Below, in pieces: positions 58,183-64,000 of a DNA stretch of 64,000 nt (positions within the stretch are counted from its first letter, which is position 1; the number at the start of each line of letters is the position of its first letter). Below the pieces are notes generated by a model. The model did no database searches. It was not told the DNA's origin and saw nothing but the letters and a program-made list of their open reading frames with translations. Both the position numbers and the translations under genes were made by a program. Source of the stretch: Propionimicrobium lymphophilum DSM 4903 (GTDB taxonomy: Bacteria > Actinomycetota > Actinomycetes > Propionibacteriales > Propionibacteriaceae); the NCBI RefSeq assembly GCF_000423485.1, contig NZ_AUIB01000001.1, forward strand, positions 496,001 to 560,000. Reading direction: 5' to 3'.

Positions 58183-58238
58183 TTGACATGACCGAGATGT
58201 ATGATTCTCATTAATCAATAATGAGAATCGTTATCATT
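58183..58238 (+). promoter_or_regulatory. Promoter region with three Fur/Zur-type half-sites before the metal-uptake operon
   Basis: A TTGACA hexamer (58183-58188) is followed by overlapping inverted repeats. GATTCTCATTA-ATCAA-TAATGAGAATC (58203-58229) is a perfect 11-5-11 repeat. AATGAGAA-TCG-TTATCATT (58220-58238) is an 8-3-8 repeat with one mismatch between arms. The middle half-site AATGAGAA is shared by both. Their T-rich/A-rich form with TCATT/AATGA arms resembles Fur-superfamily boxes (Zur or Fur). TATGAT at 58200-58205 is a possible -10. The GTG start is 14 bases after the last half-site. Confidence 0.6.
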
Positions 58239-58252
58239 TAGGAAGGCTGCTA

Positions 58253-61200
58253 GTGCTCAGCTTCAAGAAAACGGCATGCGCCGTGATAGCCGCTTGTGTG
58301 GCGATAGGTGCTGCTCCGTTAGCGCACGCACAATCAGATTTGCTCGTTGCAACTCAGGGTCACGTCGACGCGCCCAAGGTGTTTTGGGAAGGTTCGGCTA
58401 ACAATTTCACCCTGAAGACCAACTTCGGGCCAAACCCTGTTCCCATAGAACAATCGATTCTGTGGGTTGGGAAGGGCTATTCCTCGAAGGCACAACAGCA
58501 ATATTTTTACGAGATAACGAAGGGCGACGGTAGCAAGCTGGATTTCGCTGGTAACAAAGGAGATCTGCTTTATCTGGCTCCCCAAAACCCAAGCGCAAAC
58601 GCGCAAGACCCGATCTGGGCAGGTTTCGGGGCAGACACGGCAGTCCCGATTGAGAACTTCCGCGATCAAGCATTTACCCTCGACATGGTTGGATTCGACG
58701 GTCCTGGACGAATGGAAATGTTCCGCTATGGTCCAGGCTGGGATAAAGCAGAACGGATGCTTTCCAGTCACGATGTGGGGATGCGCTCTGCGTTCATGAA
58801 TGCTGGTTCGCACACTCACAACAACACGACATTCACCCGTCCTGGACGATACGAAATAATGTACAAAGCTACCGCCCGCGGCAATCACGGGTTGATCTCT
58901 TCGACACCGCAAAAACTAGTTTGGCAGGTTGGTGGGACGAAGCCGTCTCCAGAAGACCTAGGCGATGTAGCTGCCGCTTACAACGCTTCATCGGCCGACG
59001 AGTCGAGCGATTTCTTCCCGAAGTTCACGCTTTCCAAGAACGACAAATTGGAAAAAGATGGCGATGACAAGCTGACCAAGATGACTTTCACCACCTCTGA
59101 TGCTTCCGATCAGGGTACGGCTGTCTTCTACATTGATGGCTACTACCTAGCTGAGGTGCCCGTAGTGGACGGGTCAGCGGAGTGGACCGAGATGATCGGT
59201 TCTCAGACCTCCAACTTCCAGGTCGTCTACGTTCCGAAGTCGGGCGACAGCCCGCGCTGGGTTTCTGCGCCGGTCAGCTACACAACCGGGCAGGCAACTA
59301 CGTCCACTAATCAGCTAGGTGAATTTCCGCAGAAGAACAGCCAGGATCCTGCACCCGAATTTAACAATCCCGGCTTCTCAGACGGTTCTAAGGAAGTCAG
59401 CGTAAGCGCAAAGACTGAGAGCAACAAGTTTTCTAACATCACCGTGCAGCCGGCGGACGATCGCATGACGGTAAACGTCAAAGGTGGATACTTCAACAAG
59501 GCTGAGGACAAATACGTGGACTGCGATGTTGAATTTGTCTCCTCTCCAGGTCATAGAACCTATTTAGCGCCGTCTGATGGTTGCCAAAAACCGGAAACGA
59601 CGCTTCGGCTTAAGCTGATTCCACACCCCAGTGATTACCGATCCGGCGTAGATTTTGAGCAAGGGCAAGGCGGACAGGGCAGCCAGACTCTTAGCTTTGG
59701 CCCAAAAGATCAGTCCCAATTTGGTTCAAGCTCGAAGCCATCTGAGAACAATCCCGAAAGTAACGGCAATAGCGCTTCTGCTGAAGCAAATCAGCAATCT
59801 AATGGTTTAGATGCCAAGCAGGTCACGATTAATAACGGTCACTTAGATATTGGGCCGGTTCCTGGTGAATCTGGCTTGCAGATTGCTATCGGTGACGACT
59901 CTCGTCAATACGCGAACAAGACCGTGCTTCGCGCACCTGAGAGCGTCAACATCGAGCTCAACAGGCACGCAGTTCAGATTAAGGGGCCTGGCCAGAAGGG
60001 CGTATTTGCTTCTAAGTCTTACAACTTCTTAGGCGATAACGGCACAAGCTTGTGGGTTATTTCCGGGCAGCAGATAAACGGAGTTCCGTGGGTCGGTTTC
60101 TCGACCGAGCGTGTTGATCACTCCGAATACCCCAATGGTGTGAACCTTCGCATCTCCTCAATTTCTGCTCCTGAAGGCGGCAAATGGTGGGCCTTCACTA
60201 GTGACGTCTCTGACGATGTCCAGATGATTGCCTCGTCGGATAAGGCGGGCGAAATAATTGCCAAGAGCCCGACACATATGCACAACAACTGGGTATTCTC
60301 CAAGCCAGGCGAATACCTGATCGGTGTCGAGGCATTTGGCACGAACGCTTCCGGAGAGTTCAAAACCAAGCAGGCGAAAATAAAATTCACTGTTAATGGA
60401 AAGGACGATCAGCAGAGCGGCGACACTAACAGGGTAGTGGTTGGCGGAAGTAGCGATCGGTCAGCTTCTGGCTCGACTGACGGGTTGAACAAAGTCGGAC
60501 AGGCCGGTAGCGCAGCGCCCACAGGTGGCGGTAGTGCAGGCAGTTCGGCTGCGGGAGCGGCTAAAGAGGTATGTCTGCCTGTCGAGGGCGCTAGCAGCGC
60601 CGGATCCGTTGCCACTGAAGGTCACTTCGACCTCGGGGCGCGAATCGAAGACGGAAAGCTAGTCGCTTCGCTAAAGGATGATCGCAATCAGCCTGCGTCC
60701 TGGGTGGATCCTGCCTCCGTGGCATTCCAGCTCGGCGACCAGGCCAAGCTGAAGGCGCCAGATGCTTTGAGTTTCATCTCCAAAGCCGGTCAGGATGTCT
60801 GGATGATCCAGTCCAGTCAACAGGAAGGCGTGCCCTGGCTTGGCTTCAACACCATGCACGAGTCCATCGTCGAGCTGACAGAAGGCACGATCACCTGGAA
60901 GCTCGACTCCGTGGAGGGCCCGGGCAAGATGGCTGCGTTCACATCGGGCACTTTCGGTGGCGGTATCGGAGACAGGATTTTCGACAATGTAGGCGGGCCA
61001 ACTAGCTACACGGTGGCTAAGAACACCCACATGCACCCGAACTTCGCCTTTACCGAAGCCGGCGACTACAAGGTTTCGCTTACCGCAACTGCAAAGGGCA
61101 AGAATGGCGAGGAACTCAGCGCCAAGACCGTTCTGAACTTCAGCGCAGGTTCAGAAGCAAAAGTTCCCACAGTCCAGGGCTCAACAGCCAAAGACGGTAA

Positions 61201-61375
61201 ACCGCTAGTCTCCGAGGACGGCAAAAAACTGGGACGCACGCCCTCGGGCGAGGTCTGCGAGCTCGGAGCCGGAAACTTACCTTCGACGGGAGCGGCCGCC
61301 GGACAGGGTGCGGCTCTACTCGCAGCCCTCGTAATTGGTGCTTCGATTCTTGGCCGCCGCTACGTGAAGCCATGA
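58253..61375 (+). CDS. LPxTG-anchored surface protein with three actinobacterial surface-anchored repeats
   Basis: 1040-residue secreted wall protein. Residues 1-26 are a signal peptide ending AHA. Three copies of the 'choice-of-anchor M' actinobacterial surface repeat (TIGR03769 type) follow at about 35-227, 527-715 and 789-966. Each starts with GH(V/L/F)D and ends near a His-x-His motif: SHTHNNTTFTRPGRYE, THMHNNWVFSKPGEYL and THMHPNFAFTEAGDYK. The first copy is the most divergent. Between copies 1 and 2 there is a beta-rich domain (about 228-345) and a long Ser/Asn/Gly-rich linker. LPSTG (about 1009) with a hydrophobic segment and RRYVKP tail is a sortase signal. GTG start with AGGAAGG upstream. 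It heads an operon with the metal-binding lipoprotein and is probably the wall-facing metal-capturing component. Confidence 0.88.
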   Translation: MLSFKKTACAVIAACVAIGAAPLAHAQSDLLVATQGHVDAPKVFWEGSANNFTLKTNFGPNPVPIEQSILWVGKGYSSKAQQQYFYEITKGDGSKLDFAGNKGDLLYLAPQNPSANAQDPIWAGFGADTAVPIENFRDQAFTLDMVGFDGPGRMEMFRYGPGWDKAERMLSSHDVGMRSAFMNAGSHTHNNTTFTRPGRYEIMYKATARGNHGLISSTPQKLVWQVGGTKPSPEDLGDVAAAYNASSADESSDFFPKFTLSKNDKLEKDGDDKLTKMTFTTSDASDQGTAVFYIDGYYLAEVPVVDGSAEWTEMIGSQTSNFQVVYVPKSGDSPRWVSAPVSYTTGQATTSTNQLGEFPQKNSQDPAPEFNNPGFSDGSKEVSVSAKTESNKFSNITVQPADDRMTVNVKGGYFNKAEDKYVDCDVEFVSSPGHRTYLAPSDGCQKPETTLRLKLIPHPSDYRSGVDFEQGQGGQGSQTLSFGPKDQSQFGSSSKPSENNPESNGNSASAEANQQSNGLDAKQVTINNGHLDIGPVPGESGLQIAIGDDSRQYANKTVLRAPESVNIELNRHAVQIKGPGQKGVFASKSYNFLGDNGTSLWVISGQQINGVPWVGFSTERVDHSEYPNGVNLRISSISAPEGGKWWAFTSDVSDDVQMIASSDKAGEIIAKSPTHMHNNWVFSKPGEYLIGVEAFGTNASGEFKTKQAKIKFTVNGKDDQQSGDTNRVVVGGSSDRSASGSTDGLNKVGQAGSAAPTGGGSAGSSAAGAAKEVCLPVEGASSAGSVATEGHFDLGARIEDGKLVASLKDDRNQPASWVDPASVAFQLGDQAKLKAPDALSFISKAGQDVWMIQSSQQEGVPWLGFNTMHESIVELTEGTITWKLDSVEGPGKMAAFTSGTFGGGIGDRIFDNVGGPTSYTVAKNTHMHPNFAFTEAGDYKVSLTATAKGKNGEELSAKTVLNFSAGSEAKVPTVQGSTAKDGKPLVSEDGKKLGRTPSGEVCELGAGNLPSTGAAAGQGAALLAALVIGASILGRRYVKP

Positions 61376-62859
61376 CATTGAAGAAACTGCTGGTGGCGGT
61401 TCTCGCAATCCTCTTAACCGGTTGCGGGGCAGCCACCCCAACCAAGTCTCAGACGCCGTCAGTGGTTACCACCACTCCAATCCTCGCCGATCTGGTCAGG
61501 CAGGTGGGTGGCGACCGAGTTAGCGTGAAATCGATCGTGCCAGCCGGCGCTGATCCGCACACCTTTGAGCCGTCTCTGCGCACCAACAGAGATATCGCAT
61601 ATGCCGATGCGGCATTCTCAAACTACCTGATGCTGGAGCCACACTCCGTGATTAAGACGCTTGACTCGACACTGCCAGACGTGCCCAACATCTCCATTGC
61701 CGAGGAGTCCACGAAGTACGGGGCAGAGGTCATACCCCTGGTCGAATCCAGCCACCTGGACGCTTTGTGGCTCGGTCTGCGGTTGCGGGGCGATTCCAGC
61801 GATCGCTCTAGCGAGGCCCAGCTTCAGCTGGCTGGAGTCGAAGGTCCCGGGCAAATGTTTGGATACGTTACCGGCACCTTTGGAAAACCGGAAAGGTTCT
61901 TCGAATCTGGCGATGCTAACGGTGGACGTCCAGTTTTATTACCCGTTGGTGCGCACACCCACATGTCTTGGGCATTCACCAAGCCTGGAAAATATGTCGC
62001 AACGTTCGCTGTAAAAAAGGATGGCTCTGAAGTCGTTCGGCAGAACGTCACATTTGCAGTAGGCGTCCAGCCCGAAGCCGGACAAGTTATCGACATCGGT
62101 CACGTCGACGTCACTGCAGATCTGGAAAAATCTAGCATCTACCTGCTGGTCGACGAAGAGGGTGGCGGTGAAACCACTCAGCGCGAAATTGCCGCTGACG
62201 AGGCTGTGCTATCCGTGCCCTCCAAGACTCTCCAGGAAATTCCCGCAGGGGCAAGCTATAGGTTTTTGGGCTCACCCGGTGACCTTGTCTATCAGCTACC
62301 GCAGGCGGTGCTCGGCGCCCACGTCCACGGCGAGATCGATCCGCACATGTGGCTGAGCGTGCCCAACGTAAAGGCGTACATTCGCACGATCGCTGACACG
62401 CTTTGCCGGATCTCACCCAGCGATCAGGAATACTTCCGGGCCAACGAGCGCGAATATTTGGCAAGGCTCGATCGGTTAGACGAGTACGTGACAGAAAAAG
62501 TATCCGAGGTGCCCAAGGAAAACAGAAACCTGGTTACTACGCACGACGGCTACGCGTACCTAGCCAAGAGGTATGGGTTGAAGATCGCCGGATACGTGTC
62601 AGCAAACTCGTCGATCGAACCTAGCATGGCTGAGCGTCAACGCCTCACCCAGACTCTTTTCGACCTCAAAACCCCAGCGGTGTTTGTTGAGCCGTATGTC
62701 ATGAAATCCACCTCGGTGTTGCATCAAGTCGCTGAAGAGCAGGACATCAAAGTTTGCACCATTTATTCCGACACCCTCGACGATCGGGTGTCCACTTACG
62801 AAGATCTGATGCGTTTCAACGCAGACCAGATAAGCAGCTGTCTTTCCAAGGAAAAGTGA
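61372..62859 (+). CDS. Anchored-repeat ABC transporter substrate-binding lipoprotein with inserted rearranged repeat
   Basis: 495-residue cluster A-I (ZnuA/TroA-like) metal-binding protein. The lipobox LLTGCG gives lipid-anchored Cys18. The ligand positions I can place are His63 (ADPHTFEPS), His325 (EIDPHMWL), Glu416 (SSIEPSM) and Asp467 (YSDTLDD), a His-His-Glu-Asp set. Residues about 124-320 are an insert made of repeat sequence. It starts in the second half of the repeat (DALWLGLRLRG, GAHTHMSWAFTKPGKY) and then gives the first half (IDIGHVDVTADLEKSS, FLGSPGDLVYQLPQAVLG). The start overlaps the upstream stop by ATGA. This is the TIGR03772-type protein of anchored-repeat transporters. Confidence 0.9.
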   Translation: MTLKKLLVAVLAILLTGCGAATPTKSQTPSVVTTTPILADLVRQVGGDRVSVKSIVPAGADPHTFEPSLRTNRDIAYADAAFSNYLMLEPHSVIKTLDSTLPDVPNISIAEESTKYGAEVIPLVESSHLDALWLGLRLRGDSSDRSSEAQLQLAGVEGPGQMFGYVTGTFGKPERFFESGDANGGRPVLLPVGAHTHMSWAFTKPGKYVATFAVKKDGSEVVRQNVTFAVGVQPEAGQVIDIGHVDVTADLEKSSIYLLVDEEGGGETTQREIAADEAVLSVPSKTLQEIPAGASYRFLGSPGDLVYQLPQAVLGAHVHGEIDPHMWLSVPNVKAYIRTIADTLCRISPSDQEYFRANEREYLARLDRLDEYVTEKVSEVPKENRNLVTTHDGYAYLAKRYGLKIAGYVSANSSIEPSMAERQRLTQTLFDLKTPAVFVEPYVMKSTSVLHQVAEEQDIKVCTIYSDTLDDRVSTYEDLMRFNADQISSCLSKEK

Positions 62860-63719
62860 TGAAGAAAATATTTTTTGCAGCGTTATTAGCAATCTCTATG
62901 TCCATCGTGCCAGCTGCGGCCGATGAGGCAGATCCGCTTGATCAAACAGTTGTGAGCTCGGAGCAGGTGAGTGCTGAACATGCTGAGGTGAACGTAGGAC
63001 ATATTGATCTCGGCCCTAAGGTGGTAGACGGCGAGTGGAAGCTACTTGCCCGCGACGATAACTCAACCCCAGCCGTTTGGAGGGACCCGAATAATCTGGT
63101 CATGCGAGTCTCCGACGCGGCAAAGATGGAAGTTCCCGAAGGTCAAGAGTACGAATTCCTGCAGTTAGATAAGAATCGCGAGGCCTATGTGGTTCCACAG
63201 ACCCAAATCGCGTCTGTCATTTGGCTCGGTTGGAACACCCAAGATCCCGCTGTCGTCGAGCAGCTCGATCGTGGCGGCAAACTTCAGCTGCGTTCGGTGA
63301 GTGGCCCCGGCAACGTTTCGGTATTCCTGCAAAACGGTTTCGACGGCATCACCCAGCTATGGAATTCCAGCGAACTGCCGCAAGAGTTTTGGGTAGACGC
63401 AAACACTCACACGCACGCAAACTGGGTGTTCACAAAGCCGGGAAACTACAGACTCAATGTGGCATTTAACGCGAAACTTAAAGACGGCTCCGAAATCGAG
63501 GTTCCGGCATCGCTTACCTTCGCAGTTGGTGACGAAGCTAGCGGAGAGGTCGATTCCTCCCAGACCGTGGCTCCCAAAAACCAAGAATCACTCACGCAAG
63601 AGCAGTCTGAGGGTAATCCCGTAACTTTGTGGCTGATCATCTCGGCGTGCGCGGTAGTAGTCGTGGCGGCAACTGCATTCGTGGCAGCTAAGGCACGGAG
63701 GGCAAAGAATGCAGCCTGA
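62859..63719 (+). CDS. Membrane-tethered single-repeat protein of the anchored-repeat transporter locus
   Basis: 286-residue protein: signal peptide MKKIFFAALLAISMSIVPAA, one surface-anchored repeat (about 45-235) and a C-terminal membrane helix TLWLIISACAVVVVAATAFV with a basic tail (AAKARRAKNAA). The repeat runs from NVGHIDLGPKVVDGEWKLLA through VPQTQIASVIWLGWNTQDP to ANTHTHANWVFTKPGNYRL, with the same His-x-His motif. Unlike the first gene it has no LPxTG signal, so it would sit in the membrane between the wall protein and the lipoprotein. The ATG at 62859 overlaps the previous stop as TGATG; earlier in-frame starts are inside that gene. Confidence 0.88.
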   Translation: MKKIFFAALLAISMSIVPAAADEADPLDQTVVSSEQVSAEHAEVNVGHIDLGPKVVDGEWKLLARDDNSTPAVWRDPNNLVMRVSDAAKMEVPEGQEYEFLQLDKNREAYVVPQTQIASVIWLGWNTQDPAVVEQLDRGGKLQLRSVSGPGNVSVFLQNGFDGITQLWNSSELPQEFWVDANTHTHANWVFTKPGNYRLNVAFNAKLKDGSEIEVPASLTFAVGDEASGEVDSSQTVAPKNQESLTQEQSEGNPVTLWLIISACAVVVVAATAFVAAKARRAKNAA

Positions 63720-64000
63720 GATCTTAAGAGTCAAGAACGTTGATGTAGACCTGGCCAAGCGCAGGGTGCTCACCGATGCAAACTTGGTAGCTAACCAAGG
63801 GGAGATGGTCAGCGTGATCGGGGCGAACGGCGCGGGGAAAACAACACTGATCAGAGCGATACTTGGGTTGGTTCCGCACAGCGGGGAGATACTAATATCC
63901 GGCCAATTGCCTGCGAAAGCGTACAAAATGGTCGGTTACGTTCCGCAACGCCACGAATTTGCATGGGACTTTCCGATCTCTGTTTCCAATGCCGTGCTGA
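63709..64000 (+). CDS. ABC transporter ATP-binding subunit of the anchored-repeat transporter (partial)
   Basis: Runs off the window end. The first 97 codons begin MQPEILRVKNVDVDLAKRRV and contain the Walker A motif GANGAGKTTLIRAILG and the Q-loop region VGYVPQRHEFAWDFPISVSN, as in Mn/Zn ABC transporters (Q-x-x in PQR-H). The start ATG overlaps the membrane repeat gene by 11 bases and has GGAGGG upstream. A permease and perhaps another repeat protein are expected next but lie outside the window. Confidence 0.9.
   Translation, partial: MQPEILRVKNVDVDLAKRRVLTDANLVANQGEMVSVIGANGAGKTTLIRAILGLVPHSGEILISGQLPAKAYKMVGYVPQRHEFAWDFPISVSNAVL

What the first reader, a model, noticed from the sequence alone, without database searches (positions are those of the whole stretch)
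61372..62859. Surface repeat inserted into a metal-binding lipoprotein in circularly permuted order
In the separate repeat proteins the order is GH-D start, W-x-D-P, LG-x-G-D, WLG(F/W), V-x-GPG, then H-x-H-x-N and KPG-Y at the end. In the lipoprotein, residues about 124-320 give WLGLRL, VEGPG, AHTHMSWAFTKPGKY first and only then IDIGHVDVTADL and FLGSPGDLVYQLPQ. That is second half then first half, as a circularly permuted repeat would read. A permuted domain brings its ends together and could be placed in a loop of the metal-binding fold without stretching it. I know the family has an inserted repeat; I do not know the permutation to be described.
Basis: partly seen in the sequence, partly recalled or inferred. 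Interest (0 to 1): 0.7.

Follow-up and report, generated by a model that had tools for sequence, protein, structure and literature searches.

The report
Permuted zinc domain inside zinc-binding lipoprotein
A bacterial zinc-collecting lipoprotein carries, in the loop that guards its metal pocket, a whole copy of a zinc-binding surface domain whose two halves are in swapped order; a 2025 paper noted the reversed motif order in a relative, but I found no record that it is a circularly permuted domain.

Summary
The 495-aa lipoprotein (61372-62859 +) is the substrate-binding protein of the 'anchored repeat' ABC transporter (TIGR03772; ZnuA/TroA of Corynebacterium diphtheriae). Residues about 127-312 are one complete 'choice-of-anchor M' domain (NF038134) in circularly permuted order: aa 121-230 match profile positions 70-184, and aa 239-312 match 1-73. 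Rotating the insert raises its score in 83 of 83 relatives (mean 72 to 122 bits); normal-order repeats gain nothing. Separate AlphaFold2 models of insert and normal repeat show the same strands in rotated order (strand agreement 0.89, phi 0.78). The host fold is intact (Z 30 to AztC). The domain sits where zinc-binding proteins, including this genome's own paralogue, carry a His-rich loop. [quoted passage not shown] Both halves are monophyletic, so the permutation arose once. Peng et al. 2025 (PMC12445094) already reported that ZnuA has the HxD/HxH motif 'in the reverse orientation', without naming a permutation. Most likely role: a built-in zinc-capture or hand-over domain replacing the His-rich loop (inferred). 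A coordinate superposition could not be run here.

The parts
61372..62859 (+). Substrate-binding lipoprotein (ZnuA/TroA type, TIGR03772), 495 aa, lipobox LLTGC
   Evidence: TIGR03772 615.8 bits over 1-486/486; AlphaFold2 model pLDDT 85, host core Z 30.4 over 255 residues to AztC 6xpn
61732..62061 (+). Second half of the choice-of-anchor M domain, placed first (aa 121-230): WLGL, EGPG, HTHMSW, KPGKY
   Evidence: NF038134 positions 70-184, 72.1 bits
62062..62085 (+). Short linker (aa 231-238) joining the original C-terminus to the original N-terminus; optimum of the rotation scan
   Evidence: strands end at 230 and resume at 238 in the model
62086..62307 (+). First half of the domain, placed second (aa 239-312): GHVD, FLGSPG, YQLPQ
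   Evidence: NF038134 positions 1-73, 30.2 bits
61954..61962 (+). His195-x-His197 of the inserted domain (putative zinc ligands)
   Evidence: 83 of 83 relatives (biased, the scan pattern contained AHTH); equivalent to invariant H154/H156 of normal repeats
62101..62109 (+). His244-x-Asp246 of the inserted domain (putative zinc ligands)
   Evidence: 83 of 83 relatives; equivalent to invariant H19/D21 of normal repeats
62320..62346 (+). HVHGEIDPH: end of the host loop with H317, H319 and the host ligand H325
   Evidence: invariant in 83 relatives (partly biased by the scan pattern HVHG[ED][IL]DP); [quoted passage not shown]
58253..61375 (+). Surface protein with three normal-order repeats (58346-58930, 59828-60394, 60608-61141); TIGR03773
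   Evidence: model of the third repeat pLDDT 95
62859..63719 (+). Membrane-anchored protein with one normal-order repeat (62988-63527); ZnuE-like by position and content
   Evidence: NF038134 189 bits; C. diphtheriae order znuA-znuE-znuC-znuB
63709..64000 (+). ABC ATPase (TIGR03771), continues past the window, followed by permease (TIGR03770)
   Evidence: L124 310-1077 and 1071-1934
58221..58237 (+). Fur/Zur-type operator ATGAGAATCGTTATCAT just upstream of the operon
   Evidence: 0 mismatches, 0.04 matches expected in the window; only four places in the genome at one mismatch or fewer, control 0

Best explanation
The gene encodes the zinc-binding lipoprotein of an anchored-repeat ABC transporter. 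A complete choice-of-anchor M domain, circularly permuted by cutting it in the loop between its 7th and 8th strands (LPQ / WLG) and joining its original ends with a short linker, is inserted in the loop just before the host's second metal ligand. That loop is His-rich and flexible in other zinc-binding proteins. Shown by computation: the permutation, its completeness, its single origin, the insertion site, and the retention of HxD and HxH. Inferred: the domain forms its own three-His/Asp zinc site and, tethered by two flexible hinges over the cleft, captures zinc or receives it from the normal-order surface repeats encoded beside it, then hands it to the host site (H63, H325, H391, D467), as the His-rich loop does when AztC takes zinc from AztD.
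For: Permutation: profile hits in both directions; 83 of 83 relatives, 72 to 122 bits on rotation; no gain for 83 normal repeats; shuffles at most 3.7 bits; strand-for-strand match over 176 aligned residues, phi 0.78 against at most 0.24 for slid controls. Single origin: inserts form one clade in both half-domain trees, support 0.97 and 0.994. Insertion site: the genome's second zinc SBP has its His-rich loop at the same place; AztC's D-loop, residues 117-133 before ligand H138, is needed for transfer from AztD. Zinc: HxD and HxH are invariant in both kinds of domain; ZnuE/F/G of C. diphtheriae give zinc-dependent thermal shifts, and ZnuE and ZnuG need these His in growth assays; a Zur-type operator lies before the operon, and the C. 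diphtheriae operon is Zur-regulated.
Against: No coordinates, so no superposition and no measured His-His distances. His-to-Ala mutants of ZnuE still shifted with zinc, so zinc binding at this motif is not proven even in normal-order domains. Deleting znuA had only a modest growth effect in C. diphtheriae. Invariance of H195/H197 and H317/H319 is partly built in by the search patterns; that of H244/D246 is not.
Confidence: 0.62

Rival explanations
1. The permuted domain is real but works as a docking module: it binds the normal-order repeats of the ZnuE-like or surface protein, bringing the donor close to the cleft, and binds zinc only structurally or not at all.
For: The operon holds four normal-order copies around it; a single-repeat gene directly follows the SBP for 63 repeats in the 83 loci; ZnuE, not ZnuA, is critical for growth in C. 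diphtheriae.
Against: HxD and HxH are kept without exception although the rest of the insert is only 23% identical to the third repeat.
Confidence: 0.28
2. The two pieces are half-domains from two different repeats that pair with other parts of the protein rather than with each other.
For: Tandem repeat proteins next door could have supplied a segment running from one repeat into the next.
Against: Together the pieces supply each strand of one domain once; the linker is short (HxH to GHxD 46-82 aa, against 92 or more in tandem arrays); the host fold is complete without them.
Confidence: 0.04
3. No permutation: the reversed HxD/HxH motifs are a chance or convergent arrangement of short motifs.
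For: The motifs are short, and the published report treated it only as a reversed motif with a 45-aa spacer.
Against: Both halves align over their whole length, 72 and 30 bits, and shuffles give at most 3.7.
Confidence: 0.01

Closest known systems
C. diphtheriae ZnuA/TroA (DIP0438), znuAECB-znuFG cluster (PMC12445094, PMC6711530)
   Same: Same family name (anchored repeat ABC transporter SBP), reversed HxD/HxH motif with 45-aa spacer (46 here), neighbouring single-repeat and multi-repeat proteins, zinc/Zur regulation
   Different: The paper noted reversed motif order only; it does not mention insertion or permutation of a domain. Here the three-repeat gene lies upstream of znuA rather than downstream
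NF038134 choice-of-anchor M domain / TIGR03769 repeat
   Same: All strands and the HxD/HxH ligands
   Different: Order rotated, cut between strands 7 and 8, nested in another domain
AztC with its D-loop and AztD (PMC7463823); ZnuA and AdcA His-rich loops (PMC7858048)
   Same: Insertion at the same loop beside the metal cleft; in AztC a partner protein hands over zinc
   Different: A folded domain of about 190 residues instead of a disordered His-rich loop; the presumed partner is a homologue of the insert, not the beta-propeller AztD
Swaposin / plant-specific insert of aspartic proteinases (PMC3320104)
   Same: A circularly permuted copy of a tandem-repeat domain inserted into an unrelated host protein
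   Different: All-helical, plants, unrelated function
RG13, permuted beta-lactamase engineered into maltose-binding protein (PMC3375305)
   Same: Permuted domain inside a binding protein
   Different: Man-made; coupling between the domains has been engineered, while here it is unknown

Membership tests
TIGR03772 anchored repeat ABC transporter substrate-binding protein | Full-length match above the curated cut-off | tested here: met
   615.8 bits against 350.45, positions 1-486 of 486
TIGR03772 anchored repeat ABC transporter substrate-binding protein | Neighbouring TIGR03771 ATPase, TIGR03770 permease and repeat surface proteins | tested here: met
Cluster A-I metal substrate-binding proteins (PF01297) | Fold and metal ligands | tested here: met
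   PF01297 215 bits; Z 30.4, rmsd 1.8, 255 residues to AztC; H63, H325, H391, D467 invariant in 83
Choice-of-anchor M domain (NF038134) | All parts of the profile present | tested here: met
   70-184 and 1-73 of 184; 99.1 bits for the whole protein against a cut-off of 55
Choice-of-anchor M domain (NF038134) | Parts in profile order | tested here: not met
   Order rotated; hence a permuted variant, not a plain member
Circularly permuted domain | Same strands in rotated order, in sequence and predicted secondary structure | tested here: met
Circularly permuted domain | Three-dimensional superposition with permutation | not testable with these tools
   No model coordinates available; only strand order and confidence are returned
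HxD/HxH zinc-binding domains (ZnuE/F/G) | Zinc binding at this motif in the permuted domain | not testable with these tools
   Residues conserved; binding needs experiment

The most novel reading that the evidence does not exclude
A natural counterpart of engineered permuted-insert switches: the permuted domain senses or captures zinc at its own site and is mechanically coupled through its two hinges to opening or filling of the host cleft, so that homologous surface repeats, permuted insert and host site form a zinc relay from the wall to the permease.
Probability: 0.25. Interest if true: 0.7.

Novelty: new variant of a known kind. Interest (0 to 1): 0.5.

Why it matters
It explains a published oddity (the 'reverse orientation' HxD/HxH motif of ZnuA) as a whole-domain circular permutation, shows that it arose once and is spread through Actinomycetota, including Cutibacterium, and places a likely second zinc site at the mouth of the SBP metal cleft. 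That gives a direct test of how wall-anchored zinc binders feed an ABC transporter. It is also a clear natural case, like swaposin, of a permuted domain nested inside another protein.

Tried and rejected
No PDB relative of the repeat stood out: best Foldseek E 5e-3, best VIA Z 6.6, a level common for beta-sandwiches, so there was no solved template through which to compare the two models. Origin by lifting one period out of a tandem array: no intermediate, and no SBP with a normal-order or doubled insert, among 83 SBP ORFs, although the scan patterns favoured the permuted form; the linker is shorter than in any tandem array sampled; which repeat was the donor is not resolved (nearest class differs between half trees). 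Zur-like pattern with TGAAAAT arms was not clearly above chance; the ATGANAATNNTTNTCAT form was. Literature searches for the permutation found nothing in the open library; subscription papers are not covered.

Full report
What was checked. The 495-residue frame at 61372-62859 (+) exists as described, starts inside the stop of the upstream three-repeat gene and is followed with a one-base overlap by a one-repeat membrane protein. It is a full-length TIGR03772 protein, 615.8 bits, with neighbours TIGR03773, TIGR03771 and TIGR03770.

Sequence evidence for permutation. NF038134, the model of the whole surface repeat, matches the lipoprotein as profile 70-184 (aa 121-230, 72.1 bits) and then 1-73 (aa 239-312, 30.2 bits), while it matches the three repeats of the 1040-aa protein and the single repeat of the next protein full length in normal order. 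The lipoprotein model TIGR03772 matches the normal single-repeat protein in the opposite order, 227-307 then 104-222. One scan of genome contigs found 423 relatives and kept 80, all in Actinomycetota by their titles, from Cutibacterium, Lentzea and Streptomyces to Conexibacter and Solirubrobacter. With three further sequences (the window and two from whole genomes) that gives 83, and all have the second half in front of the host C-lobe, with the first half directly before it where it reached threshold. Rotating each insert in steps of three residues against a model of 137 normal repeats raised the score in 83 of 83, mean 72.2 to 122.5 bits; the window protein rises from 72.1 to 119.7 with the cut at about aa 234, in the linker. 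Normal repeats held out of the model gain 0.0 bits on average (at most 0.4) and shuffled inserts never pass 3.7 bits.

Structural evidence. AlphaFold2 models were made from family alignments, one of the whole lipoprotein (pLDDT 85, pTM 0.73) and one of the third repeat (pLDDT 95, pTM 0.89). On the profile alignment of 176 residues (23% identical) the strand states agree at 89%, phi 0.78, against a mean of -0.01 and maximum of 0.24 for slid controls; the strands of the repeat, in the order 1-7 then 8-15, map on strands at 238-309 and 133-230 of the lipoprotein, with only the short strand 4 poorly matched. The host core keeps the metal-SBP fold, Z 30.4, rmsd 1.8, 255 residues to AztC 6xpn. Both junctions, 121-128 and 313-322, have pLDDT under 50, which fits flexible hinges. 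The repeat itself has no convincing solved relative.

Where it is inserted. The aligned domain ends 13 residues before host ligand H325. The second zinc SBP of the same genome (L126 1360-2406, AdcA/AztC-like) has a long His-rich stretch ending HDHGKYDPHVW at the place where this protein has the domain and then HVHGEIDPHMW. AztC has its flexible D-loop, residues 117-133, before ligand H138; its three His are essential for taking zinc from AztD. AdcA's His-rich loop spans 120-136. So the domain stands in for the His-rich loop.

Conserved residues. In 75 varied normal repeats the only invariant columns are H19, D21, G92, H154, H156 and G165. The equivalents H244, D246, H195 and H197, from opposite halves, are invariant in 83 lipoproteins. 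The scan patterns favoured AHTH and HVHG, so only H244 and D246 are free of that bias. Permutation thus reversed the order of the two motifs but kept both, as expected if they meet in one site.

Origin. In trees of each half alone the inserts form one clade (0.97 and 0.994), so the permuted insert most simply arose once. The HxH to GHxD spacing is 46-82 residues in the inserts and at least 92 in tandem surface proteins. No intermediate was found. Permutation by duplication from a tandem array, as proposed for saposin and swaposin, is plausible but not shown.

Function. Peng, Lyman and Schmitt 2025 showed that ZnuE, ZnuF and ZnuG of C. [quoted passage not shown] They did not show conclusively that zinc binds this motif. 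Here a Fur/Zur-type operator lies at 58221-58237; the genome holds only four such places, one of them about 160 bases before the second zinc SBP match and one at the start of a CDF transporter gene. The best-supported role is a built-in zinc capture or hand-over domain; a docking role for homologous repeats is the main rival.

Verdict. The permutation is close to certain (about 0.97 in my judgement); the zinc hand-over mechanism is an inference at about 0.6. Novelty is moderate, because the family, the insertion and the reversed motif order were known, and natural permuted inserts have a precedent.

Noticed in passing
window 58221-58237; G000 C2:428153 and C2:301444 (L126, L125): Fur/Zur-type palindromes occur at only four places in the 2.04-Mb genome; three sit before this operon, before the second zinc SBP and at the start of a CDF/ZitB-like gene, suggesting a small zinc regulon.
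   Followed up: partly
L126 1360-2406: Second zinc SBP of the genome carries a very long His/Asp/Glu-rich loop in the place of the permuted domain, a natural within-genome comparison.
   Followed up: yes
L125 2019-2528: Frame overlapping the end of the CDF gene that reads, by eye, like the C-terminal remnant of a siderophore-type ABC ATPase (possible decayed gene).
   Followed up: no
L063, L071, L090, L092 and similar loci, large ORF upstream of the SBP: Surface proteins of up to about 2,400 aa with several weak C-half-only repeat matches beside full repeats, suggesting degenerate or half repeats.
   Followed up: no
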